Source of the DNA: Crambe crambe
Taxonomy: Eukaryota; Porifera; Demospongiae; Poecilosclerida; Crambeidae
Direction: 5' to 3'
NCBI GenBank assembly: GCA_963924555.1
Contig: OZ004587.1
Location: 4,340,001-4,404,000, forward strand
DNA: 64,000 nt
The notes beneath the pieces were generated by a model that ran no database searches, was not told the origin of the DNA, and was given only the letters and a program-made list of their open reading frames with translations. Below are positions 4,401-60,950 of this stretch, in pieces. Each line of letters starts with the position of its first letter. The first letter of the stretch is position 1. The translations under genes and the position numbers were made by a program.

Positions 4401-4776
4401 CCTGAGTTTGTTATCCAACCACACCCAGATATTTGGCCTTTATCATTTTCTTTAAAAAATAGCTTTGTCATCTTGTAAGTTGCCGCTGAAAAGCTGAGAT
4501 TTGAATCGCTAGACAGTCGTAATAAAATCTACATCCTATTAGGCTCTAGCTACCGCTAATATCATCCATTCATCGAACCTCTACAGGAGGGCGGGGCTTG
4601 TAACACAGCTAGTGCTACTGTACATACTTCTCACCATCTAAAGAGGTACTTATAGCACCAAGTGGTCCGTCCCTACTGATGATCAGATAGTGTAGTTGTT
4701 TTATTTCTCCCTTATAAATCTCCCTATCTAGTTTCATCCTTCTCACTCCAACCCCTTGTATCATCAAGACTACCAA

Positions 4777-4885
4777 ATGGACCCTGGCTCCCTGTCCCAG
4801 GTCCTCAATCTCTCCTTCTCATTGGTGCTTCTCTCTGCTCTACTGATGTTGAGTGGAGATGTGGAACTCAATCCTGGACCTGAAA
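4777..4885 (+). other. Exon encoding combined signal peptide and 2A-like motif
   Basis: ATG at 4777 in the context taccaaATGG. The motif DVELNPGP is residues 28-35, so skipping between G34 and P35 would release a 34-residue leader and start the death-domain product at proline. Without skipping, the hydrophobic leader stays attached. The GTGAGT donor follows immediately, so the leader plus 2A is one complete exon module. DD2 has the same exon at identical length (109 nt). Confidence 0.75.
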
Positions 4886-7800
4886 GTGAGTCCATAGTTA
4901 ACTGGACATGTTGGTAGGTCAGTCATTCAATCATACATGATAAGTGCATGGTTATAGCTGGGATCTTGGCTTACCTAATGGAAAATTTAGCACTACAGAA
5001 TGCTTTTGTTCAGAATTCAGGGGACTAGTAACTTTGACTATAGAGTGAGCATTTGAATTTTCAATCAATTATTGTTATGAGATACCCTGGGTGATTAATG
5101 TATCCAATCCGATAATAACAATTGTGTGTCACACAGCTTTATCATTGGACAAGGATCTGAGGGAAGTGAAGAACTTTACTTGGAATGCTCACACAAAGTG
5201 GTCCCACTTAGGATTAGAGTTGGGACTGCCTTTTTCCACCCTTGAAGCCATTAGAATAAAATTTGGAAATGATCCAGCCGAGTGCTTCAGTCAAATGCTG
5301 GTGGATTGGTTGGCAGGTCAAGGTTCAGAGTGTACTTGGAAAAATCTTGCCTTAGCACTGAAATCAGCACCAGTCAACTTACCTGCACTGGCTGATCAAG
5401 TTGAGGGGACTTATCTCAAGACGACTTCTCATCAATCAGGTAGCTACACTGAAGTGCACAAACTAGGCCACACTCTGTTGCATGGAAACAAGGGTTGAAG
5501 TGGATGAATTAAAAATATCAGCAGCTATGATACGTTATTGAAATTAGGAGGGCTAGGAGGCTATCCCTACTTCACTTTTTATTTAGAAGAAATTTTTTGC
5601 GCTCATACATACTAGCAAATGCAGACCTGAAATCTCAAAGTAAAGGACACCTTGGGATCAGCCACTTTATCCTTTGTAGAGAGGTTGTTAAAAATCCACT
5701 AATGCTATGGGAAAGGAGCCCAAAAGAGCGTCCTTTATTAGGAGGTTGTTCTCTTCTTGGAGGGTCCTTTATCGAAGGTTCCACTGTAACTTCCACACAC
5801 ATTTTATTTTTAGGGGCTGAACTATTGCTACATGACAGTACCACTGTATCTAACATGACTTCTGAAGGTATGTGCCTTATTATTTACTTTCTACACCTTC
5901 TGATGTAATTTGCGAACCTATCCATATCAGATCTATAGATATGTTATAACATTTGCATTTGCTGCTGCTGCTTCCTTGATCCATCAGAGCCTTGCTAGGG
6001 TATCTGTTATAGCTTAGTATTAGTTTCAAAGCATTGGATCATGAGCTTGTCTTGAAATTGAGTCATCAGTGCTACACAATAATTTAATCTCACTTGACTC
6101 TAGGTGCAGAACTTTTGCTACCAGATAATACACCTACTTCATGTACAAGTTCAGAAGGTAACTAGTTTAGTGCTTACCTGATTATTAAATTGAAGTCAAG
6201 TCTTTAATTTTAAACATGGTGTATAAGAATAGCTACTAAATAATGACACTGTGTAGACAGATTCCTCCCCAGGGGATAGTACTTTATTGATTGCTTCCCT
6301 TTGGCTATGTATAAAGTCCTCATAGTTAGCTATGAATAAGTGCAGTAATGAAAAGAAGACATGCACTAATGAATAGTATAATAAATTTACTGGGTACTCT
6401 ACATGTTGGGCGTATTATTTGTACGTACGTAGCATGGGCAGATATGGGCATACTCGGTTTGGAAATGGGTAAGCCACTGATTATAGACCACGATTTTTAT
6501 GCTATAAAATATAACATGGGTACCAGGGTTTTATGGGTTATAAATAACCCGAGTCCTGAGGGTGTAGCCCGAGGGCAAGGGTTGTTTATAATCCATAAAA
6601 CCAATGGCACCCATGTTATAACTATTTTATATCCTGCTCAGGCGAGTATAGACTAGGCTAGCTACAGTAAAGTAACTTACCTTGACACTTTAGCTGTCGT
6701 GCTACATGTCTCCATGGAGATTAAATGTTGTTTCCATGGACTACGGACAATATGACTTATACTTACACCATGGGCCTTTGATCTCGCCCATGCATGGGAT
6801 ATAAATCATCACAACAAAGCTTTCTTATCATAAACATAACTGCTGAAATCTTCATTGGTCTATGTTAGAGAATCTATCCATCCACTATAACTAACTAGCA
6901 GCAAATTTGACTTTAGTTTTAAACGATCTCCTGGAGCCATAGAGGTTATATGATAATACTTGCTGTTGCAGTCCATTTTTCCCTGTACAGCTTGTAAGAT
7001 TCTTAGACTCCATTAATTTTGTGTTCGTTTACTACTTTCAGTATACTAAGTTTAGTGGATAATGTTCTGGTCAATAACTGCATGGTGGCTTATGCTAGCT
7101 AAAGGTATATCATGGTCTAAAGGCAGTAGTCAGGTAGAACTTTTATATTGATTTCCACATTCTAGTCCACTGAATAATAAAACAGCACCTCAAATTTTTG
7201 TACAGAATGTTGGGATCATGTTATAAGAAATATTTGTTTTATTTTCATATTTTCTTGAACTAGATTCATTGAAGCCTCAATATCCTGAATCTATTATTGC
7301 ATCTACAATTAGTTCATGCTCCAGCTCTGGTAAGTTTACATGATAGTAAGTACGTACCTGTGAAGATGACTTTAAATACTCTCAGAGCTAAGTGCTGTGG
7401 ACCTCACTCCATGCTTTCCTTTCCTTGCTACTGATGACTTGTCAGAAGCTGAAAAAGACTTTCAGAGGCAGCAGCTCTACAGTGAGACTCAGGATATCAG
7501 ACGAAAGTTTGCAGGTCTTGTTTTTGATTTGCAGAAGTCTACAGAGAAGTCGTATAAACTTGAAGATGTCATCAATGTCTTAAAATTCCATGATAAAAAA
7601 TTCGAAAAGATATTAAAGGACTGTGCATCGATAGCAGAAGTATTTGGAAAGGCTTCTAACTATTGGTCCTTTTATGACCATGGAATCATCAAGCTTTTGA
7701 CACAAAAACTTGGCACGAGTTCAAGTAAGAGAAAATTTCAACGATTTGAAGAAAAATTTCAGGAGTATTCTCGGAGAAGAATCTGCGAATGTCCCAGCAA

Positions 7801-8406
7801 TGTATTTGGTGAAAAAGAAAAGTCAGAAACAGTGCTTGTCCTTAAGAGTGAATTGGAATTGGAAGACATGACTCTTAAAGAGCTTCGTATATATCAGCAT
7901 CGAATGAATCGTATTCTGAAAACATCCACCATGCGATTGCTACACGTCGATAAAGGTTGCATGGAGCTAAGTTTCAGAGTACTAGAAGATTCTCTTCATA
8001 TGGAAGCCATCACTGAAGAGAAGCAACACGCATTGAGAAATATCGGAGTCATCAGCATTAGCTATGGAGAGTTTCATTGCGATCTTACTTCCCTTGTCAA
8101 AGGAGGTGACATTCCACTTGCAATTGAGGAAGGTTAGAAAAAGTATTTATTTTGAAAGGTTGTAGCTAGTTAAAGGAACTTTAATTTTTTGCAAAAATTT
8201 ATCTTCCTTGTACAGACCCTCTCACTTCTGACCTCTCTCTGGTGGGACCAATGGCTGCCCTCAATATCAAAAGTGGTGCTGATGATAATATTGATGCTGA
8301 CTCAGCACTTGGCACTATCAGTGACGTGACTGTGGGTAGCTATCCTACAGACGATATGAGCATAGTCACTGCAGGTCTCAGGACTGAGGTCTCTGATGAG
8401 TTCCAG
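4777..8406 (+). CDS. DD1: 2A-like signal peptide + death domain + sponge-type C-terminal module
   Basis: Seven phase-consistent exons: 4777-4885, 5137-5439, 5814-5867, 6104-6157, 7264-7329, 7386-8132, 8216-8406 (at least 508 aa). Exon 1 (36 aa) has a hydrophobic core (residues about 10-25) running straight into SGDVELNPGP, which matches the 2A skipping consensus D(V/I)ExNPGP. Exon 2 (about residues 37-137) is a death-fold domain: W-x-x-L-G-x-E-L-G, a central C-F-x-x-M-L-x-x-W-L and T-W-x-x-L-x-x-A-L. Exons 3 and 4 are two 54 nt paralogous linker exons. Residues about 196-444 form a charged helical module (landmarks YWSFYDH, YSRRRICECP, VLVLKSE, GC.EL.F and a GVISISYGE motif); I recall it beside death domains in sponge proteins but know no function. 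The tail is acidic and Ser/Thr-rich. Exon 7 ends at CAG|GTAAGG; a possible last exon at 8531-8542 would add IGH and a stop. Likely an adaptor or receptor in death-fold signalling. DD2 is its paralogue. Confidence 0.82.
5540..5790. repeat. Small repeat insertions in DD1 intron 2
   Basis: 'ggctatccctacttcacttttt' followed by 'atttagaagaaattttttgc' recurs near 2000-2050 and 54340-54372. An adjoining stretch with 'aaaggacaccttggg' and 'gaggttgttaaaaatccac' is palindromic with 'gtcctttattaggaggttgt'. These are MITE-like insertions; the DD2 intron lacks them. Confidence 0.5.
6500..6634. repeat. Palindromic MITE in DD1 intron 4
   Basis: 'ataacatgggtaccagggtt' and 'ccaatggcacccatgttat' face each other, with inner arms 'ttttatgggttataaataac' and 'gttgtttataatccataaaa'. 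This near-perfect hairpin is absent from the corresponding DD2 intron. Confidence 0.65.
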
Positions 8407-8542
8407 GTAAGGAGTGAAGGAAGTGTATTCAAGATTCTTTTTCATAGCTATACATACCCCATATTCCAGTGAAATACATTCTGTAGCTACAGTGGCTAGC
8501 ATTGATCTTCAAGGAGCTCAGATTTCACAGATTGGCCACTGA

Positions 8543-9289
8543 AGGATTTTCTAGAAATAAATATTAATGGTAGAAGGCAGAAACAAATCCTTAGGTCCTG
8601 GCTCTGAGTTCCCACTTTTAGTAACTGGGCATGAGGCTGAGCTTTTTTTATTTATGTGTGGGCACAACATACAGGCAGTTATTGAGTAACTACAATCAAC
8701 TTCAAGATCAAGCAGTTAAATGCTAGTTTGAATACATGCATAAATCAGTGAGTAAGCTTAGTAATACTCTCAGGACATGACTATGGTGGCCGAGAAGGGC
8801 ACATTTTTAAGGCTCTTTCTTCAGTTGCAGAAGACTTGTGGTGCAAGTACAGCATATGTGTGGCACATTTAAATAGGTGCAGAGCACGCAAATAATTGCG
8901 GAACATGCAACAAATAGTTGCAGAGAAAGCAAATAGTTATTGAGTGCACAAATAGTTATGGAGTGTACTAGAATCACCTGCGACCTCTTTGCAAATATTC
9001 ACTGCACCAGCGGTATCCACAAATCCGCCAGTGGTACCCGCCACATACACTCCCCCCCCCCCCCCCCCCCCCCCTGCACGGTTATAGGGAATATGCATGA
9101 GCTGCAGATCCGGAAAACCTTTACCCAGTCATTATACCGCGTGTTGTGACCCTTTACCCAGTTATTTATGTACTTGTAATTGTACCGACATGAAACTATT
9201 TTTTCAATGGTTTTGATACTGAAAGGAATGCATCAACTTCTATATCCAGTTCCTTACTAATATCTTATATAGCATAGGCTACCAATTAT
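8543..9289. other. Spacer after DD1 with a 23-base C tract
   Basis: 8500-8660 still aligns with 58725-58880 downstream of DD2, so the duplication includes the 3' flank. Beyond that there is low-complexity text with an AAATAGTTG-like motif (8890-8960) and a C23 homopolymer at 9052-9074. No gene seen. Confidence 0.5.
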
Positions 9290-13400: not shown

Positions 13401-13654
13401 AGTGAGCGCAAAAAAGTAAAGTAGGGATAGCCATAAATATAGCTCCATTATTTAATACTATTTCTATTTCAGTAACCACGCCTATATCCAACTTAAATCC
13501 CTACTTCACTCCCACCAGTGAATCAAGTAACCACCAAACTCAAGAATAACAGCAATATTACAATATTACGCTTGTTCCTTGAACATTTGAATAAAGTTAG
13601 ACCTTCAATTAAATTTACGGTAGAGTTAGAGAAAGATGGTAAACTTCCCTTAAA

Positions 13655-14410
13655 TTCTTAGATTGTTTATTAGAGGTAGACAATGATGGTAAAATTTTAT
13701 CTACAGTATATAGGAAACAGACACACACAGATAGGTATTTCAATTATAGATCACACCATCCAATACATGTAAAAAGGGGAGTTATTAAAAGCTTATATGA
13801 TAGAGCCACGAGGGTTACTACACATGAAGAGGACTTAGTTAAGGAACATACGCATCTTAAAAAAGTTTTTGTTAATAATGATTACCCAGAAGCCTTTCTC
13901 TCTGCAACTTTAAATCCCGTAGCACCAAAACCTAGGGAAGATAATAGTAATAGGGAAGAAAGAAAAAAACAAATAATAATTCCATATGTTAAAGGTCTTA
14001 GTGAAGACATTAGGAGGGTTTGCAGAAAATTTGATGTTAAGGTTGTTTTTAGATCAGGGGTTAGTTTGAGATCCAAACTTTCTAAGGTTAAGGATAAGTT
14101 GCCATCTGACCAAAATTCTAATGTTGTTTACAGGGTACCTTGTAGTTGTGGAAAATTTTACATTGGTGGAACGGTGAGAAGGCTGGAAACTAGGTTGAAG
14201 GAGCATAAGGAAGCTTGCCTACGAGGAGAACAAGAAAAGTCTGCAGTTGCTGATCATGCCTGGAGTAGTCATCATCCTATATTATGGAAGGAAGCTTCAG
14301 TTGTAGATCAAGCTAGGACTAGGAAGGAGCTGCTTCTAAAAGAAGCACTTCACATTAGTTTAACTTCAGAAGAACAGTGTTTTAATAGGGATGTAGGTCT
14401 AGAACTTTAA
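13655..14410 (+). pseudogene. PLE reverse-transcriptase tail plus GIY-YIG nuclease ORF
   Basis: Open for about 250 codons without an ATG at its head. It includes the post-catalytic RT region (HTDRYFNYRSHHPIHVKRG) and a GIY-YIG fold with the usual Y-x-G and an Arg on the following helix (RRLETRLKEH). The PLE endonuclease nicks target DNA during insertion. It is truncated and separated by a frameshift from the preceding RT fragment, so it is scored as a pseudogene. Confidence 0.78.
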
Positions 14411-22007: not shown

Positions 22008-22250
22008 CACTGTAAAAACGAATCAGTGAACATCACTACACAATCGGTGACCTTCAATACCAACTACGTTCACTACATAGCAGTGAAAAATGAAGTAGTA
22101 AGCTTCACCACAAATTTAGAGACCTTCACCACCATTATAGTCACTGCCCAGTAGTAAAACCTAACTGTAGTGATGTTCACTCCTTATGTAGTAACCTTCA
22201 CACCGGCCAAGTAAATTCACTACCATTTTGTAGTGAACCCCACAACTTAA
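22008..22250. repeat. EnSpm left terminal and subterminal repeats
   Basis: TIR CACTGTAAAAACGAA, then multiple copies in both orientations of a GTGAACATCACTAC-like word, with 'agtagtgaa' and 'gtagtgaac' variants. Subterminal repeats are the usual transposase-binding arrays in this superfamily. The right end (31040-31256) mirrors them. Confidence 0.8.
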
Positions 22251-22268
22251 CTTAGACATTGAGAAATT

Positions 22269-25200
22269 TCAAATAATATGATACTTCAAACAAACAAAAA
22301 GAGTTCTATCGGAACCAAATGTTTTACAAATGTGTAATGGGTGATGGTCAGCAAAGTCAGAATGCTTACACACAGATACAGTTGATGTAGGATTAACTGC
22401 AAAAGCATGATAATGGTGATCAAAATAAGTAGTGCTTAGAAGGCGCATAATGAATAGAGTCTCTGAAGCTGGAGTCTCATAAATGTCCAGTATTTGCCCA
22501 AACATGGGCTCTTCATCTGTTATACTGCTCACAATGATGTAGTCTTTCTTATATGTGGTGCCATTAAATGTAGTTGATTTGGCCCTGATGCGACAAAAGA
22601 CTTTATTATTATTCTGATATTACCAGATGACTAACCTCCAAAGTGTACTCTGATCAGTAAGTTCTGGTACCTTCATTAAAATCTCTGTACAAAAACTGGT
22701 ATCACCAACTTTGACCTCAGACACTGCATAGTAATGTGCATGCCTAAATTGATTGTTTCCTGTTCTGTTAATATAACCACAAAAATGTATAATAATTAGC
22801 TGTTACACAGGTGCCACTACAGTGCTGTGTGAAGCCAAGATGGAAAAGATGAAGCATGCCTCTTATTTATGATGGTGAGTAAAGTAATGAGCTACCCTAA
22901 GGTAAATTGATTATGGACCTGTTCAATAGAGAGATCGAAGCCTTCCATGCTAGGATTGTAGTTAGCACATGTATGTAGGGATGGATTAGCTAATGTGCTA
23001 TGATCATGCATTGTACACACTATACAGTGTGTGTGTGTAGTGTGACCATACCATAAAACAGTAGGACAGTGTGACCATAATAATTATGACAGCAGGACAG
23101 TGTGAGACCATACGACCACAGGACATGCAGTGTGACTATAGGACTGTGTGATCATAATGACAGTGACTATAGGACAGCAGGACAGTGTGACCATACAATA
23201 GGATGGTCATGCTGTCCCGCTGTGGCCTATGGTCACACTGTTGCTGTTCTATTGTCACACTGTCCTATTGTCATACTGCATGTCCTATAGTCACACTGTC
23301 CTGCTGTCCTATATCACACTGTTGTATGGCCTGTCTGCTGTTTTATGGTATGGCCTGGCCACACATGCACACATTGTATAATGTGATAATCATTATCCCT
23401 ACATATACATGTGCAAACATCTTTAAAGCTTATTAGTTCAAACAAGCTTGAGTGCTTCAAGTTGTACTAAAATGTGGACATTCAAAAGTGTCCTGATTAG
23501 AGACTGAAGGGGGGGAGGGGACAGGTGTGTGAGCATTCCAAAACCCAGCTCAGTTTTGCTTACCTCCTGTGTAAGTGACATAATGCCTTAGATATGTTTG
23601 AGGATTCAGCATCTGATAGCACATAAAATGCTGATGTTTGGCAGCTAGTGTTTTTGGAAGGTTCTTAAAGTTCCTTAGCACATTAGCAATATGCTTGAAG
23701 AAGCTGTGCTTGGCTTCATACCGCATGCACCACAATCTAATCAAGGGGCCACACCTATAACCAGATAAGCAAATAATTAATCCAATGGGGATGACATAAA
23801 CTGGAAGCCCATGTACCATGAAATCCATGTTGCAATATGCACTAAATAGTGCATCTTTGGAGTAAGGGGCCTTTCGGGATATAGTCTTTTGAACTCCTTG
23901 AGGAAATCCTCAACAAGCATACACACATAATCAGTACGTTCTTCATGTATAATCGGTGCAAAAACTTCATCCATAATCTCCAAATGAGCTAGATAATTGT
24001 CCCAGTATTGGTGTCCACTAGGAATTTTATCCCCAATTATGAGAGGAAGAAATCGTCCTAAGCACCACATTTGGCTAGCTAAAAGGGGGAAAAAAAGCAA
24101 ATTGCATGTTCAGTAGGGATACTAAAAACCTTGACTCTGTATTATGGACTGGAATATGGACTGGACATGGACTTAAAATTGACTTTTGAAATACCCATTC
24201 AGTTAAAATGACCTTTGAGCACCCTTTCTCAGCTTAATATGAACTGTGAAAACCCCTTTTCAAACCTACTTTCCTTAGTATTGAAAGAACTTGGATCGCA
24301 TAGTGTCCCCATTCAGTAATGGAATGACACTCTTACTCACCAGATTGCTTAATATCGCTATTCCCAGTAATGTGCTTCAGATTCAAGCAAGATGGTTTAT
24401 TTGGATCATCAGGGCCGAAATGAAATGACCTTATTCTACTGTTAAGTAGTTCAAGTGAAAAAAGCTTGTCCTCTACAATGCACTGATTCAATAAGTGTTT
24501 CATACATAACTTCAAGGTACCTTCAGGAGATAACAACAATGATTAATTCAGAACAACTTCTGAAATGTGGACACACCCTGTACACACAGTGATCTCTCTC
24601 TAATCTTGCTCCCAGAAATAAGGCCACCCCTGTACTTGGGCCACTTCAAAAATATGCCTCCTAGTGGAAATATACGTACCCCTGAAACGAGGCCACCTAT
24701 CATCAAAATACAATTCAATTATTGACCCTCGTTAAGTGGGCATCATTTGGAAAAGAAATTTGGCAAATGAAAATAATTAAGGCAAAGATCATACTGGTGA
24801 GCCTCTAAAATGGGCATTATTATCTCTAGTATTTAGGGTATAGTATACAAGTAAGTTACAAAATTTACTGGATTATTCATGAAACTAACCTTCCAGAATG
24901 TTGTGCATTATGTCTGGAACTAAGCCTGTAGTGACATGAAAGTACTTAAGATCGTTGAGAACAGAATTTCTAACCACGCCAAAAGTCGTTGCAATGTGGT
25001 CATTTAGAGGGCCACCTAAGTCAGCACAGTGAGCATCATATATATCCTTTGTCCTCAACTGTAGGTTTTCTTCAGAAAACTAAGTGAAATCAGTCCATAT
25101 AGTGATAAACAAAGTCATTATATTAATTGTTTTTGTTTTCTAGATTACCTCTTGCTGCATTATATCATCAGTAACCATACAGTATTGGCATTTACGAAAT

Positions 25201-26619
25201 GCTGACATAAGAGCTTTGTACCCCCCTATTGACCAGGCAGCTAAATTATCTGCGGAGAAGACAGTAACTGTGCCTCTAAATGACACTACAGTTCCGTCAA
25301 AGTCAAATTCAACTCCATTAACCTTCAAAATCAAAAGATGAGTTCAAATAGCCATATAGCTATAATACTTTCGTACATACCCTTTCAAGCTTCAAAATAT
25401 CATCAACCACTGGCTTTATCATCTCATCTATTCCATAAGCACATATGTGCTCATACTTAGCAACACTAAGTAGGTGAATACTTTTTAGGGAAGAGCGAAG
25501 TACTGGATCCAAATTACCCAGTGTATAATACAGAAGTCCTGTATATAATAATTATGTATATATCATGTGATAAGGCTTCTAGAACCTTGATACACTCTAA
25601 AAGTAGAGTTGCAGCAATGAATATATCCATTACCTAGTTTGTGTTTTTTGGCTTTACTTCCAAGCGGGTTGCAGACCTCTAGCTCATCATAATACAGCTG
25701 TATTTGAAGAGCACTTGGGTCTTCCTTGAACAACTCATTTTCAGCAAATAATTTCCCATCACAATAGTCACCTAACATTTTGTTCTTCTTTCCATGAGAA
25801 TTTCTGATCTAATTAGTCCCACACATAAACTTAGAAATTCCGTGTATGTATGTATACAGCTATCTACCTGTTCTTGAACTGAATCCATATATAGTAGCTT
25901 CTGTAAAGAGTCTAGCAAACTGATATCATAGCAGCAATCAGCCACTTCCTTAGATTGCCCACCCCTCTCCACTAAGCATCGTCCTAGTACTCGCTCAGTT
26001 GGCTCCTAAAAATAGCACTCCATTGAACTTATATATAAGGGCTACTGTTTCTGGTTGTACTCACAAGATAATGAAAATTGTCTTTATAGTACTTCAGCTG
26101 CTTACGTTCTGTTTCTAGGTCATCTAGTGGGAAGCTATTGTTAAAGTGCTCTTCCAAAGAATTAAAGTCTATATCTGGTTCTAACAATTTTGTCTTCAAA
26201 GATTCCATGCTTGTCATCCACAGCCCCTTTATATCACTGATTATCATATTAAGGGTAGATTGGGGAATTTGATACTGGTCTCTAGCTTTGAGCAGAAACC
26301 TGGCTCCAGAATTGTGCAAGTCAATTTCTTGGCTGACACTTTCTGTTACAAAAGGTTCTGGGGGTTCAGTTTCAGTTTCTAAGGAATCAGATGCTTCTGC
26401 TGCTGTCAGAATAGGTGATGTTACTGTATGGAGAGCATTTCTATGTTTACGGTAAACATGAGAACGGAAAGACTCATAATTCATATACGTTTGAGGGCAA
26501 TGATCAATCCCACAACGAATTGTAAGTCCAGCATCAAACCTGTGTGCTTCACCAATGTGCCTTAGAACAGCAGCAAAAGAGTTCCCTCCAAACATATTGC
26601 ATATTGAACACACATACAT
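22269..26619 (-). CDS. EnSpm transposase, 11 exons, about 820 aa
   Basis: Catalyses cut-and-paste movement of the surrounding element. Exons read on the minus strand: 26619-26065, 26005-25868, 25808-25634, 25538-25381, 25322-25149, 25079-24890, 24520-24341, 24078-23817, 23754-23564, 22759-22636, 22584-22269 (TGA). Every junction is GT-AG and phases agree, totalling 2,463 nt. The N-terminus has two C2H2-type fingers (CSICNMF...H, CGIDHC...H). Family landmarks follow: QLYYDELEVCNPLGSK, YYTLGNLDP, SADNLAAW, YFHVTTGLVPDIMHNILEG, ASQMWCLGR, PLTPKMHYLVH, LWCMRYEAKHSFFK and C-terminal HHPLHICKTF. These match my memory of animal EnSpm/CACTA proteins along the whole length. No premature stop seen. Transcribed divergently from the SAM gene. 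Confidence 0.92.
23030..23345. repeat. Palindromic minisatellite inside transposase intron
   Basis: Repeated 'aggacagtgtgaccata' units (23040-23200) are followed by the inverted version 'tatggtcacactgtcct' (23215-23340), centred near 23208. It lies in the 804 bp intron between the ninth and tenth transposase exons. A transcript through it could fold into a long imperfect hairpin. Confidence 0.75.
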
Positions 26620-26835
26620 TTCTACTATTAAATAGAATTAATAATTAAGTTGCTATAGTTGCTAAATTCTCTAACCTTTTCACAAAACACAGCTTAGTAA
26701 GTAGAAGTTGCTTTTTAGGCTTTCATCAGCTCAGCTCATAGGCATACAATAATTGCTGCTGCTCTCGATCTCTAGCTCAAAATAATCTACTGCACATGCT
26801 CAGTAACAAAAAGAGCAGCTGCATTAAATTTAAAT
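26620..26835. promoter_or_regulatory. Shared divergent promoter of the EnSpm genes
   Basis: 216 bp separate the transposase ATG (26617-26619, minus) from the SAM-gene ATG (26836, plus). The interval is AT-rich and must hold both start sites. I see no unambiguous TATA box or factor site. Confidence 0.55.
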
Positions 26836-29800
26836 ATGGAAGATTTCAGAAGCTTATCCATTGAGGAGCTAGGGGGATATCTCCAGAATAAAAGTGTTAG
26901 TGATGATGCCATTGAAGCCTTGAAAGAGAATAAGGTGTCAGGACTTGCTCTGCTACTGGTTTCTGAGAGTGAGCTTAAAGATTTACTTCCAACAATTGGA
27001 GATAGAGCCATTGTGCGTTCACTTTTGAGTGATATTAAAGTAAGTATCATCTTAGAGATTACTATGCCCCTTTTTACCTCTGGATATTGTAGTTATGTTT
27101 GACAAAAACGGGATTGTAAGTAGATAATCTCCATTTTTATAGATATAATATAGCTATAGGCATAAAATATGCAGTGAGTAAGAGCTACTTGAGGTTAAAA
27201 CTCCCTGAGACTCCCTATAGAGATTATTAGTGGCAGCTTTTTGGTGTCCTTTGGGCTAAAATACATTTTTCTATGAGAAATTTGATAGCTATACATGACT
27301 GAAAGAAAGTAGAACAAGTACCTTCCTAACTGCTGGCACACTTGGATACACTATAAGAAATATACTTGTATAATTTCCTTAGGGACATAGATCTACTATA
27401 ACTGAAGATGTGGCTCCTGTTAACAGAAAGGTAGAATTTTACGTTCGTTAAATCCTAAGTCATAACTACATGGAATCTAGTTTCAGCATCCAATTTTGCA
27501 ATATACATATTATGAGCAGGGCCTATATAGCATTTATGTTTGACTAAACAGCAACATTGCACTTTGATAGGACAGTGTAAATTATATTTATAGTTTCAGA
27601 TCTACAACCCTACCAGTAGCTATAGGCAAATTTTATACTAATGATTATGACGATGATTATAGGTAACCACTAATTTTGATTCTGATAGTTCAGATTTTGA
27701 AGAGGTACAAGAAGATGGTGTAAGTACATTGCTAAACCTGATGTTGTCATATCTTGTTTCATTGATGATTATTGTCCTGATTACTATAGAAATATGGAGG
27801 ATCTAGATCTCCTTCTGATGATGATGATGAGCATTCAGTTGTGGAGGAGCTTGATGTAAGTTCGGAGATGTGGTAATCTTGCCATACAAAGTTATTAGAA
27901 TAATTGTAGGATCCTAAATGTAAGAAGTCCAAGAAGGAAATTCCTCAAGCTATTAAGAATGTTCCCATACTCAGTAAAAGAGGGCATGAACCTCCACTTC
28001 CTAGTCCATATGTTGTGCCACAGAACTTTCCACAAGCTATTATGAATGGGTTAGAAAATAAGAAATTAATCGGGAAGCCAAGGACCAAGTTTATCACTAT
28101 CATCGCACAGTCCATTTACAGGTCAGTTATAATGGGTGAGCACTCTAATTAGTGCCACACAATGCTATATTCTGCAGGTATAAAAGCTATCCAACTGATA
28201 TGGAATATTTTCATGTGGCACAAGAACTTGCAAAGAAGTGGCCCTTCCTAGATGGTGGAAAAGGCATAGTAAGTTTTTTCTCCATAGTAGTGTAACTAAT
28301 ATGTTTCATGGTCGGGCAATACAGAAATACTTGGTGGTTGCTATGCGAATGAGAATGGCATACCTGAGAAAACCTGACAATATGAAACGGGGTAATCCCT
28401 CTACTGAGAGACAAAAGCCAGCTCGTAAAATGAAGCCAACAATGCCTGCAGTTCCAGCTCCTAATTTGCTACCAGTTGGAGAAGATGATGCTTCACAGCT
28501 TAGGCACTCTAAACTCCTTAAATCCGAGTTGAAGAAAGTTAACCCTAATAAGCGGACTGTTAGGGAGTTAATGAAGAGGACATTTCCACTTCGAAGGGAA
28601 GAAATTGTTGAAGGTATGGGTTCTGTGCAAGATGTGTTGTCCTCCTATGCAGCACTTAAGTATCCTGAAGAGGTAAGTTCTTTCTAATCTACCTGCGCAA
28701 GACATAGTTGGATGCATTACCTGGTATTAGATGTAATGGAATATCCCATAATAGAATATCCTGTAAGAGATTATACGTACTTCCTGAATGTGTTATTACC
28801 TGGGTATTGATCAAGAGATCAAAATTGACCCCAATGGTGTGTGGGTAAATCCCAAATTTTGTATTGATTCATAGATACAGTAAACTTTGACACTTTAACA
28901 GCCACGCTTTCTTGTCTCCATGGAGATCAAATGTTTCCTTAGACGACAGGCAATATGACTGATATTGCCTGTCACCATATACCATGCTGTGGCCCTTTGA
29001 TTCCCCCCACACATAGGAATTTACACTAATCTGAACCTTCAGAAATCCAAATAGCCAAAAATAATATTCATGGCTATCTTGAGGTGCATTAAATAAAAAC
29101 TATAAAGTGCTCCATTCAAACTGTATGCATTCACTAATCTAAATCTTTCACTAATCCAAACAGGTTCTGGTCCCAAGTTATTCGGATCAGTGAGGGTCCC
29201 ACTCTAGTGTGTACTGTGTAGGACAGAGGAAATTTATTAGAGAGAGCAGTAGCTCTCTCTATGTAGGGATGATGCGGATGGTGGCGTGCACCGCCTATAG
29301 ACTAATACAAAAGTGAAATTCTAGCTCCACCACTTAGACTTAACAAAAAGCTACTGTGAATGATTATCCAGCCTACTAGCTAGAGCCTACTAGGATGTGC
29401 AGACCAAGTTTCAGAACCAGGGAACTTACCGTTTCAGAAATACGGAAAGCAGGTAAATCGCTGGATTCTTCTTCTTCTCTATTCTTCTTCTTCTTCTTCT
29501 TCTTAGACAACCATATCTCTCGAACCACTCAAGCTACAGCTATGATTTCTGGATAAATCCACTCCAAATTCTACCAACTACGATCTTTTGTACTCGTCAA
29601 TCCTCGAAGGAGTTGATGTAAAAAGGAGACACTACGGAACACACTCGACTAACTTAATTATTGAAAAGGAGACAAGGGTAGGGATGAAGGATGGAAATGG
29701 GATCAATCTTTGTTCTATCCAGCCAACAATCCCTACATATACGTACATTACTGCACTATAATCTGAAGCTACCCGACTTATATGTAGGGATTGTTGGCTG

Positions 29801-30940
29801 GATATACAGAACAAAAGATTGATCCCATTTCCATCCTTCATCCCTACCATTGTCTCCTTACTTTTTTGAGCAATGGTCATCCCTACATTTTTTTTCATTT
29901 CACGGAAATGTTTTTTCCCCTTATAACATTGAGCTTTATTGTATGAAAAAGTCTTTCCTTGATCCTATCCTCTCCCTGCTTCAAAATATCTTTTCTAGGC
30001 TCCTTTTTTTTCTTCAGATAATTCTGGAATTTAGTAGAATAATGGAGAAGGATATGAATGAGGCTATCATGGATTCTTGGAATAACTTTGTTCCTAAGAT
30101 ATTGGATATGTGCACTGATAGTGACTCTCCTGGACTTCAACACTTTCTGGATCTATACTCACTGGATGAGGTATCTGATGGTAAGTGGAGTAGGGAAAAT
30201 CTTTATAGGTGAATGTTATAGCTATAACTTATAGGGAGAACGCATTAGCTAAGCCTATTAAATTTGTTTTGTATATTATTTTGTTCACAGGTTATCGAAG
30301 CATTCTTGCTCTGTGCTCTTTAGTTTACCTCATTCCTGATGTCAGGACTAAAGTTGATCACAACAAAGTAGCTATTTTAATTGAAGTAAGCCTAACCCTT
30401 AACACAGAAAATAGTTGTATTAAGCTTGTACAATTTGTATGTTTACAAGCTCTTGCATGCTTCAGTGATTTTTGTGTTGCATCTAGTACATACACAGTGG
30501 AACCTCTATGTAAAATACTTTGGGACTAAGTTGGAGGTCAGCTAGCTTCTTGACTTTGGCTGAATATGGAGAGTCCAAGAGGTTCCACTACTCCCTTGCT
30601 AATACTGACACTATTTTCCTTATAATTATAGGACACTGCAATTGTTGCTGAGGAGCTCCCTAACCTGGGTACCACACAACCCTGTCTGATCGTGAGAAAG
30701 AATGACAGTGGACAGATCAAAGATGTTTTCTTGGTGATAGAAAAACTTGTAATCAACAAGGTTGAAGTTAACACTGCCATACTAGTTTTATTTTCCTCCT
30801 TTTTTGTTTTTAATGTCAACTATCCACCTGGATGTAGTAATTTCTATACTTTATTAGAATGCATTTTTCTGAATAAGCAAATTCAGGGACGAAAGCCTAG
30901 ACTAGCAGCCATTTTAGCTGAACTAACAGTTATGGACTAA
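26836..30940 (+). CDS. SAM-domain accessory protein of the EnSpm element, 10 exons, about 530 aa
   Basis: Exons: 26836-27039, 27383-27430, 27663-27719, 27790-27855, 27910-28121, 28178-28268, 28325-28672, 30018-30180, 30291-30385, 30632-30940 (TAA). All borders are GT-AG with matching phase. Exon 1 (68 aa) is a SAM domain (LSIEELGGYLQ, GLALLLVSESELKDLLPTIGDRA). Exons 2-5 encode an acidic Ser/Asp-rich linker and a basic patch. Exon 7 contains the RKMKPTMPAVPAPNLLPVGED region, and the last exon a hydrophobic stretch LVLFSSFFVFNVNYPPG. Fish genes labelled 'SAM domain-containing protein 3-like' have, as I recall, this same architecture and derive from EnSpm elements. The role in transposition is unknown; SAM domains usually oligomerise or bind protein or RNA. 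The intron 28673-30017 holds a nested hairpin repeat. Confidence 0.85.
29465..29510. repeat. TTC-rich microsatellite
   Basis: 'ttcttcttcttcttcttctt' and an interrupted neighbour lie in the long intron of the EnSpm SAM gene. Simple sequence, no function inferred. Confidence 0.8.
29660..29930. repeat. Nested hairpin MITE in the EnSpm SAM gene
   Basis: 'gggtagggatgaaggatgga' and 'tccatccttcatccctacc' face each other, with inner arms 'ccagccaacaatccctacat' and 'atgtagggattgttggctgg'. Flanking 'catttcacggaaatgttttt' resembles 663-690 in inverse orientation, so the family recurs in the window. It inserted into the transposon's intron, leaving its exons intact. Confidence 0.7.
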
Positions 30941-31256
30941 CACTGAGTTGTGTAAACTTGTCACTATTCTTGTGTAAACTTTATAATTATAATTAGCTAT
31001 ACATTATTATTATTGTGATCATTATTAATTTTGTATAAAGTGAGCTTCACTAATAATAAGTGGTGATTTATGCTATATTTCAGTAGTGACTTCTAATGCC
31101 ATCTAGTGATCATCACTACAGTAAGTGGTGATGTACACTACTACTTCTGTAGTGAAATACGCGGTGGTGAACCCCACCACACCAAATGAGGTGACTCCTG
31201 TGGCAAGTCATTCACTACCTTTTAGTGGTGATGTTCACTATTTCGTTTTTACAGTG

Positions 31257-39980: not shown

Positions 39981-40072
39981 GTCTTTCTACAATCCTTTAG
40001 CTACTAACTGCTCTGATAATCTAGCTTTAATTATGATCAAATTTAGCAGGTTATTCTCCCTAGAAGACTTCA

Positions 40073-41374
40073 ATGGCAAAGCAGTTACGTTATGGTTCTG
40101 TTGAGATCTACATCGACGATATTCTTGGTGTTGGCTCCTATGGCAAGGTTTGCAAGGGCAAGTGCGGTCAGCTGCCTTGTGCTGTCAAGCTTCTCCATGA
40201 CACCATGTTCCAACATGGTGATCCAGGGATTCACAGCTTTGTAAGGAGGTTTGAACAAGAATGTCAGTTTCTCAGCTCCATAAAGCATCCAAACATTGTT
40301 CAATACCTTGGTACTATCGCAAATCCTGAATCAGGAAGACCTGTTCTCCTGATGGAGCTAATGGATGAAAGTCTGACCAAATATCTTGAGCGATCTACTG
40401 GGCCCCTCCATTACTACACCCAGGTGGATATCTGCCATGACATATCACTCGCCCTGGCCTACCTCCACTTCAATGCAATTATCCACAGAGATCTCTCTGG
40501 AAACAATGTCCTACTGATTGGTGCTGGCAGTAGAGCCAAAGTTACTGACTTTGGGATGTCCAAACTCGTGGACATGAACCCTCGCATGACCCCTCTCACC
40601 CAGTGTCCAGGAACGTCAGTCTACATGCCTCCAGAAGCACTAATAACATCACCTGGCTATTCCAGCAAACTGGATTGCTTCTCTCTTGGTGTTCTTGGTA
40701 TTCAGATAGTCACCAGGAAGTTTCCTAACCCTGGTGATGCATACACATATATCAAAGATCCCAAGTATCCAACTGGACGTGCATTAATACCAGTCCCAGA
40801 AATCGACCGGCGCAAAGAAGATATTGATTTAATATCAGCTGATCACTCCCTCCTTCCTGTCATGTTGCAATGTATCAAGGACTTGGATGAAGACCGACCG
40901 TCAGCAGATGAACTGTGTGAGCAACTGTCTTCACTGAAGAGGGAAGCAAAGTACATGCACAGTAAAGATCAAAGCAATGATCAATCTTCACTAGTGCAGA
41001 GGCTCCAGTTAGGAGTGGAAACCAAAGAGCAAGAAATTCAATTGACTATCGAAACAAAAACCAAAGAATTTGAAACCACTCTTCAGCAGAAAACAGAAGA
41101 GCATAAGAAAGCTATTCAGAGGAACACTGAAGAACGCAAGAGAGCACTTCAGCAGAAAACAGAAGAGCACAAGAGAGAGCTCCAGCAGAAAGCAGAAGAA
41201 CATAAGAGAGAGCTCCAGCAGAAAACAGAAGAGCTCCAGCAGAAAGCAGAAGAACACAAGAGAGAGCTTGAGGAAAAAGAACAAATCATTCAAGGATTAC
41301 GTGATTTGAAAAGTGGAACTGATGTACAGCACAAAGAAGATGAAATGGACCAGTCTAATAATGTGAGTATATGA
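40073..41374 (+). CDS. Protein kinase (TKL-like) with repetitive coiled-coil tail
   Basis: A 433-codon frame; the in-frame TAG at 40061 supports the ATG at 40073. Kinase domain about residues 13-285: glycine loop GVGSYGKV (19-26), VAIK-type lysine K39 (CAVKLL), catalytic HRDLSGNN (138-145), TDFGMSK (158-164), activation segment end YMPPEAL (184-190). All catalytic residues are present, so it is predicted active; the HRDLSGNN/MPPEAL style matches a tyrosine-kinase-like (Ser/Thr) group that I recall as expanded in sponges. Residues about 300-415 form a charged coiled coil from near-identical units (Q-Q-K-T/A-E-E-H-K-R-E-L), a recent in-frame expansion. The last codons lie over AAT|GTGAGT (41363), a good donor, so the true protein may continue into another exon and the stop at 41372 may be intronic. 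It sits between the two ankyrin copies. Substrate unknown. Confidence 0.88.
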   Translation: MAKQLRYGSVEIYIDDILGVGSYGKVCKGKCGQLPCAVKLLHDTMFQHGDPGIHSFVRRFEQECQFLSSIKHPNIVQYLGTIANPESGRPVLLMELMDESLTKYLERSTGPLHYYTQVDICHDISLALAYLHFNAIIHRDLSGNNVLLIGAGSRAKVTDFGMSKLVDMNPRMTPLTQCPGTSVYMPPEALITSPGYSSKLDCFSLGVLGIQIVTRKFPNPGDAYTYIKDPKYPTGRALIPVPEIDRRKEDIDLISADHSLLPVMLQCIKDLDEDRPSADELCEQLSSLKREAKYMHSKDQSNDQSSLVQRLQLGVETKEQEIQLTIETKTKEFETTLQQKTEEHKKAIQRNTEERKRALQQKTEEHKRELQQKAEEHKRELQQKTEELQQKAEEHKRELEEKEQIIQGLRDLKSGTDVQHKEDEMDQSNNVSI

Positions 41375-41640
41375 ATCGTTTATCTTAAGAATCATTGAAA
41401 AGTGAATGTGCACTTCATTGCAAGTAAGGTGATTATAATTATTAATGATTTAGCATGGGGACAATAATATCACATTCAGAAAATGACATCCACAAAGCAA
41501 TTTTTATTTGCTAATGTAATTGTATCATACAAAATTGTATGGAACTTCTTGTATACCCAAATATTTAGCTTTGTAGCTAACTACTACTTATAAAGTCAGA
41601 TTTCAATTGTAGCTAGCTACATGTACATCTCTACAGAGCA

Positions 41641-42130
41641 CTAGATAAAGCCAGAAGGTGACGAAAATAGAATAGATAGCTTAATTAGTTCAGATTTACG
41701 AGCGCATTAGTAGTAAAGCCTACCTTAATCTTGGCATGACTTGAACTGTTGCATTCTCTATTCTTGAAGCTTTCATGGCCGACTAGCTAGCTTTAGCACT
41801 TTATAAAACTTAGTTTAAGGATCATAGTTTCGATTTGTACTGAAGAAATTTTTTGATAAAAATGATTTTGCTCACTAAAACTATTGTAGGGCTTGCCAAT
41901 TATTTTTTCTGACTGCAATGCTTTCCTGAAGCAAGTTATACGTTGACTACATAATCTATTTCAGTCTCAAATTAATCAGATTCAGGACTGAACTGTGATT
42001 TGTACAGAAAATGATTTGGCTCACTAAAACTATTTTGAGCTCTGATGATTAGTAAAGCATATAAGAGTTATGATTCTGCTTACATATTTTTCTCAGCTAA
42101 CATGATAAAAATTCAATAGAATTAGTTCTA
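41641..42130 (+). repeat. Duplicated repeat block, start (copy at 60951)
   Basis: From 'actagataaagccagaaggt' onward this is nearly identical to 60951-61430. The similarity continues through 42131-44090 against 61432-63435, making a roughly 2.5 kb segmental repeat with only scattered substitutions and small indels. No gene. Confidence 0.8.
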
Positions 42131-42240
42131 GCTTATGAAACAAACTACCAGCGTTTTGACCAGAATACTCGAGCGTTCCATCAGGGTGATACAAAAAATG
42201 CACATAGAAAAGTTCTTATATAGCTACACTTGTTGTTGAA
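42131..42240 (-). mobile_element. Penelope-like element 3' tail, copy 3
   Basis: The reverse complement carries 'tatcaccctgatgg', 'gagtattctggtc' and 'gtttgtttcataagct', the PLE 3' region. The hammerhead core is damaged (CTGATGG, CAAAAC). Just beyond it, 42230-42340 carries PLE-type terminal repeat sequence in the opposite direction. Confidence 0.7.
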
Positions 42241-42354
42241 ATAGTATTTATGACTTCTGGTAATGACATGCTATTGACATGGTAACATAATATCCCAAGG
42301 CATATGCATGTGCGTTGTCTAGATAACAAGCGTAGCTCTGGTTTGTTTCAAGAG

Positions 42355-46752: not shown

Positions 46753-47184
46753 TATGAGATGCAATAGTTGAAAACATCATACTGAATAGCTCTGAAATGG
46801 ACATTCTAGAAAGTAGGAAGTGCTAGTCAGTATGAAACTGTAGTTTTCAACTATGGCATCTCATAAGTCGGTGTAACTACTTGCCTTATTATTCATGAGC
46901 AACCAAAGTGACTTCATAGTTACTGTACTCATTATTAGTTGTGATTTTCTAAATTCTAGTTGCTGCATGATCTCTAAGTAGTCATACATGTAGCTGTAAT
47001 TAGCCAGTGATTGTTTACTACACATACAATGGTACATTACATGCTGTAATTACAGTCAACATGTAAACAATGACATTATCATGTGTGGTGTGTCATATAC
47101 AGGGCACAATCCATAAACTTCCAACTTAGTAGCTCTATGAGAATATTAGTACTAGAGTGAGAGTTTTCTTCCTTTACATCACAG

Positions 47185-55586: not shown

Positions 55587-55920
55587 GTTTATCCAACCAC
55601 ACCCATTTTTTGTCTTTATCATTTTTTCTTTAAAAAAAGCTTTGTCTTCTAGTAAGTTAGCACTGAAATGAATTGCTAGACAGACAGTCGTAGCAAAACA
55701 TACATCCTATTAGGCTCTAGCTATTGCTAATATCACCCTATCATCGAACCTCTACAAGGAGGGCGGGGCTTGTACCACCGCTACTAGTGTACTTATAGCA
55801 GCTAGTGGTCTCCCTATTGATAAATCAGATAGTGTAGTTGCTTTATTTCCCCCTCGTGAATCTCCCTGTCAGTTTCATTCTCCAACCCATACAGTACCCT
55901 CGTATCATCAAGACTACCAA

Positions 55921-58600
55921 ATGGACCCTGGCTCTTCCCAGCCCCTCAACCTCTCCTTCTCATTGGTGCTTCTCCTCTCTACTCTACTGATGTTGAGTGG
56001 AAATGTGGAACTCAATCCTGGACCTGAGAGTGAGTGCATTGTTAGCTGGATGTGTGGGTATAGGTCACTTGATCATAATAGCTTAAGTATTGGAAATCAG
56101 TCATTATAATTTTTGAGCTAAGTTAACTCTGTCCTCAGAGCTATATAAGATAACCTACTTAACTACCTGTCAAAAAAGTAGATTTACCATGTAATAAAAA
56201 GTAATACTAGCTACAGATGCAAATAAAGGCAGGGGACTAATATACCTATAGGTGAATACAGTGAGTTTTTAAAATGTCAAACTAAAGCTTGTGATTCCAT
56301 ATTCCTAATGCCAAATATAGCTATGTAAGTTGGTATGAGGGATGATTGCTCTCATTATGTTCCTACAGCTGTCTTAGTTGCAAGGGATCTTAAGATGGTG
56401 AGGAATTTCATATGGGGAGCCCATACCAAGTGGTACCACATAGGTGTGGAGTTGGAAATGGATCCTTCCACACTACAAGCAATCAAGGAGAATTTCTCCA
56501 ACAATCCTGCTAATTGCTTTAGTCAAGTACTGCTGGACTGGCTGGAGGGACAAGGCTTGGAATCTACGTGGTCAAATCTAGCTGCAGCTTTAAAGGCACC
56601 ACCTGTTGGTATGTCAGCTCTAGCTGAAGCAATTGAAGCAAAATATCTTGGAAATACACATCAACCTGGTAAGTAATGCTAACTAATCAGTCTTTGCTTA
56701 TTCCATTTACCTTTCTGTTCAACTAACATCAATCTGATGCTCGCAGTAGTTATATTACTTCTCCTACAAACTTTCATTTATTTCCACATATGGGTTGCTA
56801 CTAGTGTAATACATTCCAAACATTAATTGGATCATGAGATTGAGTAAAAGCAAATCATAAAGTGCAATGCATTGATTTAATCTTATCACACTTCACTTGA
56901 CTAGGTGCACAACTTTTGCTACCAGATAATGAACTGACTTCATCTTCATGTACAAGTTCAGAAGGTAACTAAATCTTAGTGTTGTAAAGCTGCTTACGTA
57001 CAACATTGATCTCTATAATTATTAATTATGGTGTGTAAGAATAGCCATGCCTAAGCAATGACATTGTGTATAGATAAAGGACAATACAATAATTGGTCCA
57101 TTAGCTACACATTACAAAAATGTTTCACTATTACAGTGAAATGTAACTACTGAAGAACCTCTCCTTTTCCTAGATTTAGGTAGACACAATCTTCATTGGT
57201 CTATGTTTCATATTCATAGAGAATCTAGATATATTAATCATAATCCTTTCTAAAACAAACTAGCAGCAAATTCAACTTCTTTAGTTGATAGTTTTCATAG
57301 CTATTAATAAAAAATACAATAGCTACTTCTTGTTACAGTCCATTATTCTCCCTACAGCTCGTAAGTTTTCCTTGACTCCATTAATTTATCTACTACCATA
57401 GAGTAGCTAGAAACATTCATTTTCTTGATCTAGATTCATTGAAGCTTCAATATCCTGAATCTGTTATTGCATCTACAATTAGTTCATGCTCCAGCTCCGG
57501 TAAGTTAAGATTATGTAAATGATACTATCATTATGACTATTATTATTCCCAGAGTTAAGTGCCATAGACCTTACTCCATGCTTTCCATTTCTTGCTAATG
57601 ATAAGTTGTCAGAAGCTGAAAAAGATTTTAAGAGGCAGGAACTCTACAGTGAGACTCAGGTTATCAAACGAAAGTTCGCTAGTCTCGTTTTCAATCTGCA
57701 AAAAACTGCAGAGAAGTTTCACTCAGTTAAAGATGTCAAAAATGTCTTAATATATCATGACAAGAACTTTAAGAAATTGCTACAAGGCTGTACAGCTGTA
57801 GCAGATGCATTTGTTGAAGCGTCTCAGTATTGGTCTTTTTATGACCACGAAATCGTCAAGCTTTTGACCAAAGAACTAGGAACGAGTTCAAATAAGAAGA
57901 AATTCCGCCAATTTCAAGAAATATTTCAGGAGTATTCTCGAAGAAGAATCTGCGAATGCCCCAGCAATGTATTTGGTGAAGTAGAGAAGTCGGAAACAGT
58001 GCTCGTGCTTAAGAGTGAAATGAAAGTGGAGGACACTACTGTTGAAGAGCTTAATATATATCAGCACCGGATGAATCGTATCCTGAAATCATCCACCATG
58101 TGATTACTACATGTTAATAAAGGTTGCATGGAGCTAACTTTCAGAGTACTTGGAGATGCTTTACATATAGAAGGCATCACTGAAGAGAAACAGCAAGCAT
58201 TAAGAAATATGGGAATCATCAGCATTAGTTACGGAGAGCTTCATTTTGATCTGACCTCCCTTGTTAAGAGTGTAGGAGGTGACGCTCCACTTGGAATCGA
58301 GGAAGGTGAGAAGAACTATCAAGTTATTAACTTGATCAAATCTAAGGTTATACGTAGTTAAAGGTAGTTTCAAATTTCACAGATGTCCTTCCCTATCCAG
58401 ACCCTCCCATTCCTACCCTCTCTCTGGTGGGACCAATGACTGCTCTTGATATAAAAGGTGATGCTGATGACAACACTGATGCTGACTCAGCACTCGGCAC
58501 TATCAGTGACGTGACTGGAACAGATGTGGGTAGCTATCCTACAGATGATATGAGCATAGTTACTGCAGGTCTCAGGACTGAAGTCTCTGATGAGTTCCAG
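55921..58600 (+). pseudogene. DD2: paralogue of DD1 with in-frame TGA
   Basis: Exons mirror DD1 phase for phase: 55921-56029, 56369-56668, 56905-56964, 57434-57499, 57553-58305, 58401-58600; one of DD1's two 54 nt linker exons has no counterpart. Exon 1 encodes the same hydrophobic leader ending SGNVELNPGP (D changed to N at the first 2A consensus position). Exon 2 is the death-like domain (about residues 37-136). The third module is open until TGA at 58101-58103, where DD1 has CGA (Arg 379), so translation would stop after 361 residues, losing the GC.EL.F region and the tail. After the stop the frame stays open and conserved. It may be a young pseudogene, a truncated protein or a polymorphic allele. 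The upstream region is split by the hAT-like element. Confidence 0.82.
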
Positions 58601-60494: not shown

Positions 60495-60950
60495 GGTATT
60501 TATTTTTTGCCTTCTAAATTAATAGAATCTATGAAAATCATCCACCATTTAAATAGATTGAGATAAATCAGGAGAATTTATAAAACATTAATTCACTTTT
60601 TTATCAATAAAGTTGAGATCAATTTAAGGCCAAAACTTGATGGCAACGCTTAAACGGAATGCTCTATTTTGATGTTAAGTATTCGTCAGTGCTTCATGAA
60701 TTGAGAGGAGTAACAAGTCTTACTCAAATTTGTGACCTTCTCTGGGAGAACCCAGCAGTCAGCCCAAAATAATAATTATCTACAGCCTTTGGCTCTCTAC
60801 TGCACGTATTTCAAAGCTCTAGCTCCTATGATGCCTGAGGAACAGCACCTAGAAAGCTCCAGGTAGCAACCATTAACTTTTTCATAAAAGGCTGAATAAG
60901 CAACGTGAACTAGTTTCTCACTTCCTGGCACTACAGAACACTAGATAAAG

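What the first reader, a model, noticed from the sequence alone, without database searches (positions are those of the whole stretch)
4777..5439. 2A-type ribosome-skipping motif merged with a signal peptide ahead of a death domain
Exon 1 of DD1 encodes a 34-residue hydrophobic leader ending SGDVELNPG, then P; the next exon is a death domain. The motif fits the 2A consensus D(V/I)ExNPGP exactly. Skipping would release the death-domain protein into the cytosol, while read-through would keep the leader and send it to the secretory route, giving one mRNA two destinations. I recall this dual-targeting idea being reported for 2A-like signal sequences in sea urchin NLR proteins; here it sits directly in front of a death domain in what looks like a sponge gene.
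Basis: partly seen in the sequence, partly recalled or inferred. Interest (0 to 1): 0.88.

Follow-up and report, generated by a model that had tools for sequence, protein, structure and literature searches.

The report
Ribosome-skipping leader before death domain
Two neighbouring animal genes each begin with a short greasy leader that ends in a ribosome-skipping (2A) signal and is followed by a probable death domain, so one mRNA could make both a cytosolic and a secreted form of a cell-death-type protein, as reporter tests showed for a sea urchin leader.

Summary
Exon 1 (4777-4885) encodes 34 residues ending SGDVELNPG, then P; a GT-AG intron follows; exon 2 (5137-5439) is a probable death domain (Pfam Death, 20.2 bits, just under the 22.6 cutoff; weak six-helix model whose 21 best Foldseek hits are all death-domain entries). 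Both fit the expanded core (D/G/C/N)(V/I)ExNPGP and the L-rich, SG-ending upstream class of a 2026 StopGo study. They are the only two NPGP words in the six-frame window.

Most likely: StopGo release of most product to the cytosol, with a minority of read-through sent to the secretory route, as reporter tests support for a sea urchin NLR leader. No activity, transcript or signal-peptide test was possible, and the species is unknown.

The promoter-leader block is 88-93% identical between copies, while the death-domain exon is synonymously saturated in an otherwise largely unalignable stretch. This suggests a common 2A leader joined to exchanged or fast-diverging death-domain exons. New variant of a known kind.

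The parts
4411..4776 (+). Gene A: conserved upstream (promoter/5'UTR) block before the leader exon
   Evidence: 88.5% identical over 323 aligned bases to 55589-55920; the 400 bases further upstream align no better than shuffles
4777..4885 (+). Gene A exon 1: 2A/StopGo leader, 34 aa then P E, ends in phase 1; octapeptide DVELNPGP, p6-p11 LLMLSG
   Evidence: compared with motif classes in PMC12846837
4858..4881 (+). 2A core octapeptide DVELNPGP; predicted skip between G (codon 4876-4878) and P (codon 4879-4881)
5137..5439 (+). Gene A exon 2: probable death domain, phase 1-1 exon
5814..5867 (+). Gene A exon 3 (linker; resembles exon 4; no counterpart modelled in B)
6104..6157 (+). Gene A exon 4 (linker)
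7264..7329 (+). Gene A exon 5 (linker)
7386..8132 (+). Gene A exon 6: 248-aa conserved region of no known family
   Evidence: no Pfam family other than Death in the spliced protein at E<=0.1, no NCBIfam family at E<=1, only two weak PDB matches (E 0.38, 0.40); model unusable
8216..8406 (+). Gene A exon 7 (acidic linker); either spliced on or read through to a stop at 8467-8469
55589..55920 (+). Gene B: conserved upstream (promoter/5'UTR) block
55921..56029 (+). Gene B exon 1: 2A leader with D to N (NVELNPGP), same length (109 nt, 34 aa then P E)
56369..56668 (+). Gene B exon 2: probable death domain, 56% identical to A
56905..56964 (+). Gene B counterpart of exon 4
57434..57499 (+). Gene B counterpart of exon 5
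57553..58305 (+). Gene B counterpart of exon 6, with an in-frame TGA at 58101-58103
58401..58600 (+). Gene B counterpart of exon 7

Best explanation
Exon 1 is a stand-alone StopGo (2A) leader that is also signal-sequence-like. When the ribosome has added G34, the L-rich tract and the D/E/N residues lock the nascent chain in the exit tunnel, the G-P bond is skipped, the 34-residue leader is released, and translation resumes at P35, giving a cytosolic death-domain protein that begins PETLSLDK... (inferred; the steps are shown for viral 2A, and skipping for a sea urchin leader). The leader is about one tunnel length, so the skip should be decided before the hydrophobic core can reach SRP (inference from general knowledge). 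Ribosomes that fail to skip expose the leader as a signal sequence and send the same protein to the ER. The paralogue's D to N change may set a different split, or may be neutral. Sequence, exon layout, duplication and motif class are shown. Skipping, targeting and purpose are inferred.
For: Exact core motif, and only two NPGP words in the six frames, both directly before death-domain exons of paralogues. p6-p11 is LLMLSG in both, like the LLLLSG-like, (A/S/C)G-ending L-rich class of PMC12846837, where a motif-6 example was active in vitro and p12=N variants exceeded 95% in natural contexts. Leader A matches the tested sea urchin leader SpNLR2A6 at 15 of 26 residues, 8 of 18 upstream of the octapeptide (46 of 20,000 shuffles did as well). 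Leader length stays 34 aa in both copies through a one-codon loss and a one-codon gain. The death-domain exon is constrained: pN .26 against pS .77.
Against: No transcript, translation or localisation data. No SignalP-type prediction; the n-region has no Lys or Arg. The wild-type sea urchin leader gave a mainly cytoplasmic product in HeLa cells, so a useful secreted share is not assured even there. Copy B has a premature TGA, so both copies may not be working genes. Leader conservation is partly regional (upstream DNA 88.5% identical), so it does not by itself prove selection on the peptide. Two copies only; no outside relative was found (exon 6 in viral contigs: none; leader DNA in prokaryote genomes: none, and none expected; leader core codons in viral contigs: none).
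Confidence: 0.62

Rival explanations
1. Leader disposal: a signal-like exon with its promoter came to lie in front of a cytosolic death-domain gene, and the 2A keeps the protein cytosolic. The secreted form is waste; there is no functional dual targeting.
For: The upstream-leader block behaves as one unit, 88-93% identical between copies while the rest of intron 1 does not align and the death-domain exon is diverged. The most active 2As give 90-99% separated products (passage). The wild-type sea urchin leader product looked cytoplasmic in HeLa cells. Death domains are known to act in the cytosol (general knowledge).
Against: The hydrophobic tract is itself part of what drives skipping in this class (mutations in it lowered skipping in the sea urchin leader), so its presence is not spare; that leader skipped only about 80% in vitro.
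Confidence: 0.25
2. Dose gate: the 2A acts mainly as a nascent-peptide pause or termination point, tying output of the death-domain protein to translation-factor state (eEF2, stress), with location secondary.
For: Roulston et al. proposed stress/eEF2 control in their Discussion. Atkins et al. [quoted passage not shown]
Against: No data here separate it from dual targeting.
Confidence: 0.08
3. Not functional: exon 1 is not joined to the death-domain exon in the real mRNA, or both genes are decaying copies.
For: No transcripts available; copy B has TGA at 58101-58103.
Against: The same GT-AG junction and phase in both copies, an open 508-codon frame in A, purifying ratios in exons 2 and 6 (exon 6 dN/dS .24 before and .20 after the TGA, so the stop looks recent).
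Confidence: 0.05

Closest known systems
N-terminal '2A-like' signal sequences of Strongylocentrotus purpuratus NLR proteins (SpNLR2A; Roulston et al. 2016, PMC4981915)
   Same: N-terminal, Met-started, L-rich, SGDVExNPGP ending, in a protein family with an N-terminal death domain; 15 of 26 residues of leader A match SpNLR2A6.
   Different: 34 rather than 25 residues before the final P; L rather than R at position 11 from the end (R11A lowered activity there); no NACHT domain found among the large open frames examined; a paralogue with N for D; a discrete phase-1 leader exon whose copies show mosaic divergence (exon layout of the sea urchin genes not checked).
Viral StopGo/2A, L-rich upstream classes 2 and 6 (PMC12846837)
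   Same: Core octapeptide (D/N)VELNPGP and p6-p11 LLMLSG.
   Different: At the very N-terminus of an intron-containing animal gene model, not between domains of a viral polyprotein.
2A-like sequences of non-LTR retrotransposons (mentioned in PMC4981915)
   Same: Same core motif in animal genomes.
   Different: No 2A-bearing retrotransposon in this window: the only two NPGP words are the two leaders.

Membership tests
StopGo/2A recoding element | Core D(V/I)ExNPGP or the expanded (D/G/C/N)(V/I)ExNPGP | tested here: met
   A: DVELNPGP (both forms); B: NVELNPGP (expanded form only)
StopGo/2A recoding element | Suitable upstream context | tested here: met
   LLMLSG at p6-p11, compared by eye with the LLLLSG-like class and (A/S/C)G ending described in PMC12846837; no motif program was run
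StopGo/2A recoding element | Measured skipping of the G-P bond | not testable with these tools
   needs a translation assay
N-terminal 2A signal sequence (SpNLR2A kind) | Lies at the N-terminus of the open frame | tested here: met
   first in-frame ATG; nearest upstream in-frame stop at 4729 in A and 55711 in B, with no in-frame ATG between
N-terminal 2A signal sequence (SpNLR2A kind) | Predicted co-translational signal sequence | tested here: inconclusive
   hydropathy like SpNLR2A6 (2.27 and 2.41 against 2.33); no SignalP available
N-terminal 2A signal sequence (SpNLR2A kind) | Two sub-cellular destinations | not testable with these tools
   needs a localisation assay
NLR (DEATH-NACHT-LRR) receptor | N-terminal death domain | tested here: inconclusive
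   just below the Pfam cutoff in both copies; weak model with death-domain best hits, none at E<=0.001
NLR (DEATH-NACHT-LRR) receptor | NACHT and LRR domains downstream | tested here: inconclusive
   none in the 508-aa model of A, nor in 6 of the 7 + strand frames of 150 aa or more downstream of it (frames listed; the seventh is B's exon 6, not scanned with Pfam); small or more distant exons cannot be excluded

The most novel reading that the evidence does not exclude
A promoter plus 2A-leader exon is a fixed front end to which different phase 1-1 death-domain exons are joined or allowed to diverge, and the D to N change at p12 in one copy is a naturally selected dial for the cytosol/secretory split. 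That would make ribosome skipping an evolving control layer over death-fold proteins beyond the sea urchin NLRs.
Probability: 0.22. Interest if true: 0.82.

Novelty: new variant of a known kind. Interest (0 to 1): 0.6.

Why it matters
PMC12846837 calls cellular use of StopGo rare and names the sea urchin leaders as one likely example of useful partial skipping. A further animal gene pair with the same trick, whose copies differ at a key StopGo residue, is a natural experiment on whether partial skipping is selected and what a secreted or cytosolic death-domain form does. It also suggests a check on sponge NLRs reported with transmembrane segments (PMC12909245, passage): some such segments might be 2A leaders (my conjecture).

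Tried and rejected
Chance motif: rejected (shuffles; second copy). One simple conversion tract: does not explain the whole pattern. By blastn the alignable blocks between the copies are 4411-4921 (77.8%), 5153-5350 inside the death-domain exon (67.8%), 6033-6255 (71.7%), two short patches in intron 4, and 7249-8660 (77.3%). Synonymous divergence varies even within the last block (exon 5 .07, exon 6 .41, exon 7 .20), and the death-domain exon is the extreme (pS .77; Fisher p 5e-8 against the leader and 9e-7 against exon 6, on rounded counts). Leader against exon 6 differs less (p 0.009). Exon 6 identity: no Pfam family in the spliced gene A protein other than Death, no NCBIfam family, two weak PDB matches at E 0.38 and 0.40, no viral-contig relative (5 pattern matches, none confirmed); its model had pLDDT 37 and was not searched. 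Leader DNA in prokaryote genomes: 0. G(D/N)VELNPGP codons in viral contigs: 0 (that collection may hold few RNA viruses). Rfam and tRNA scans of the window: 0 and 0. Pfam on 10 further frames of the window: 0 matches at E<=0.01. Species: not determinable with the collections on hand.

Results against the reading: Foldseek gave 0 of 52 matches at E<=0.001; both Pfam scores are below the curated cutoff; copy B has a stop; leader conservation is nearly matched by non-coding upstream conservation; 18 of 382 other ATG-started stretches are at least as hydrophobic as leader A.

Full report
Observation. Exon 1 runs 4777-4885 and encodes MDPGSLSQVLNLSFSLVLLSALLMLSGDVELNPG, then P and E; exon 2 runs 5137-5439. 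All introns of the model are GT-AG, and seven exons give an open frame of 508 codons up to the donor at 8407. The frame may instead run on unspliced to a stop at 8467-8469 (seen in the sequence). The ATG is the first in frame after an in-frame TAG at 4729.

Is the motif chance? NPGP occurs twice in the six-frame window and D.E.NPGP once; 40 base-shuffled windows averaged 0.425 NPGP and had no D(V/I)ExNPGP. The second NPGP (56014-56025) sits at the same place in a second gene of the same build, which settles the question for me.

The second gene. Gene B starts at 55921 with a 109-nt leader exon identical in length to A's (MDPGSSQPLNLSFSLVLLLSTLLMLSGNVELNPG, then P, E), followed by a death-domain exon (56369-56668) and counterparts of exons 4 to 7. 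In the alignment the length is kept by one lost and one gained codon. The only change inside the octapeptide is D to N. Gene B has an in-frame TGA at 58101-58103 in exon 6; the sequence on either side shows purifying ratios (dN/dS .24 before.20 after), so the stop looks recent.

Death domain. Pfam Death matches both copies just below its cutoff (20.2 and 22.5 bits against 22.6). A two-sequence AlphaFold2 model of A has six helices (mean pLDDT 66.6, pTM 0.54). Its 21 best Foldseek hits are all death-domain entries (Fas/FADD, ankyrins, RAIDD, an oligomeric death-domain complex, TNFR1, p84), the best with E 0.11 and probability 0.99; 0 of 52 reach E 0.001. phmmer found three weak PDB matches: ankyrin-1, PIDD-CC and a leucine-rich repeat and death domain protein (E 0.25, 0.33, 0.54). 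'Probable death domain' is the fair wording. Exon 6 (248 aa) has no known family: nothing but Death in the spliced protein by Pfam, nothing in NCBIfam, two weak PDB matches, and an unusable model.

How the two copies differ. Upstream DNA is 88.5% identical over 323 aligned bases and the leader exon 93.4% over 106. Similarity then stops 36 bases into intron 1. Between there and 6033 only the death-domain exon aligns: 62% identical at DNA level, 56% in protein, and saturated at synonymous sites (pS .77, against .15 leader.15 exon 4.07 exon 5.41 exon 6.20 exon 7). Fisher p is 5e-8 for leader against death domain (rounded counts). From 6033 alignable blocks return, and 7249-8660 aligns throughout at 77%. 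The death domain is nevertheless constrained (pN .26). The leader exon ends in phase 1, and exons 2 to 6 of A all have lengths divisible by three and lie between phase-1 introns, the layout that allows whole-exon exchange. I read this as a common promoter-leader front end with an exchanged or long-diverged death-domain exon; with two copies this is an inference.

Mechanism. [quoted passage not shown] other passages by search) describes F2A clamped in the exit tunnel through an L-rich helical stretch and D12/E14/N16, finds L-rich upstream motifs ending (A/S/C)G, and widens the core to (D/G/C/N)(V/I)ExNPGP. p12=N was over 95% active in natural contexts, whereas D12N had been only modestly active in a foreign context. 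Both leaders here have LLMLSG at p6-p11. PMC4981915 (abstract, part 1 of 2 of the Results, Discussion and passages) reports for one sea urchin NLR leader about 80% skipping in vitro, cytoplasmic product with the active leader, and mainly Golgi product when skipping is blocked. Leader A matches that leader at 15 of 26 residues, 8 of 18 upstream of the octapeptide (46 of 20,000 shuffles did as well), which is similarity of type, not proof of common descent. So: skipping very likely (about 0.85), signal function likely (about 0.65), selected dual targeting open (about 0.4). These three figures are my estimates.

What is not shown. No transcript, no assay, no SignalP, no species. The leader's conservation cannot be credited to protein selection alone because the non-coding DNA beside it is nearly as conserved. 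De Felipe et al. 2010 (PMC2978324, abstract only) report that the 2A reaction is inhibited by the C-terminal region of some proteins when these are translocated into the ER; with a leader this short the skip should be decided before SRP contact, which is my inference.

Novelty. In the listings of the library searches (at most 20 rows each) I saw no paper reporting such a leader outside the sea urchin NLRs. NPGP with 'death domain' gave 0 papers. In the 2026 Dysidea NLR paper (PMC12909245, passages) 'signal peptide' and 'ribosome skipping' do not occur in the main text, though transmembrane segments in NLRs are mentioned. Rao et al. 2025 (Cell Rep), which by its title surveys eukaryotic and viral 2A sequences, is not held, so this gene may already be on a list. 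I rate it a new variant of a known kind: same trick, no NACHT seen, a D/N paralogue pair, and a discrete leader exon with a divergent death-domain exon behind it.

Noticed in passing
window 22008-31256: A 9.2-kb insert bounded by 32-nt inverted repeats (CACTG...CAGTG, 91% complementary) splits an ankyrin-repeat frame; the related frame at 47161-48453 is uninterrupted at the same point. It looks like a CACTA/EnSpm-type DNA transposon with a 2-3 base target duplication (class recalled from its ends).
   Followed up: partly
window 57553-58305: Gene B carries an in-frame TGA at 58101-58103 with purifying ratios on both sides: a recent stop or a truncated product.
   Followed up: partly
window 7386-8132 and 57553-58305: A conserved 248-aa region (motif ...YWSFYDH...RRRICECPSNVFG...) downstream of the death domain with no Pfam or NCBIfam family and only weak PDB matches (library scans made on copy A).
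   Followed up: partly
window 41631-44073 and 60931-63438: A 2.5-kb repeat, 94% identical, plus several shorter diverged copies (10017, 14610, 59487): probable mobile repeat family.
   Followed up: no
window 40064-41371: A 436-aa open frame with a protein kinase domain (Pfam Pkinase E 1.6e-38) and a weak apolipoprotein-like tail match, between the two death-domain genes.
   Followed up: no
window 13643-14407: Frame with a weak GIY-YIG match (E 0.0016, below the curated cutoff), possibly a Penelope-like retroelement remnant (class recalled).
   Followed up: no
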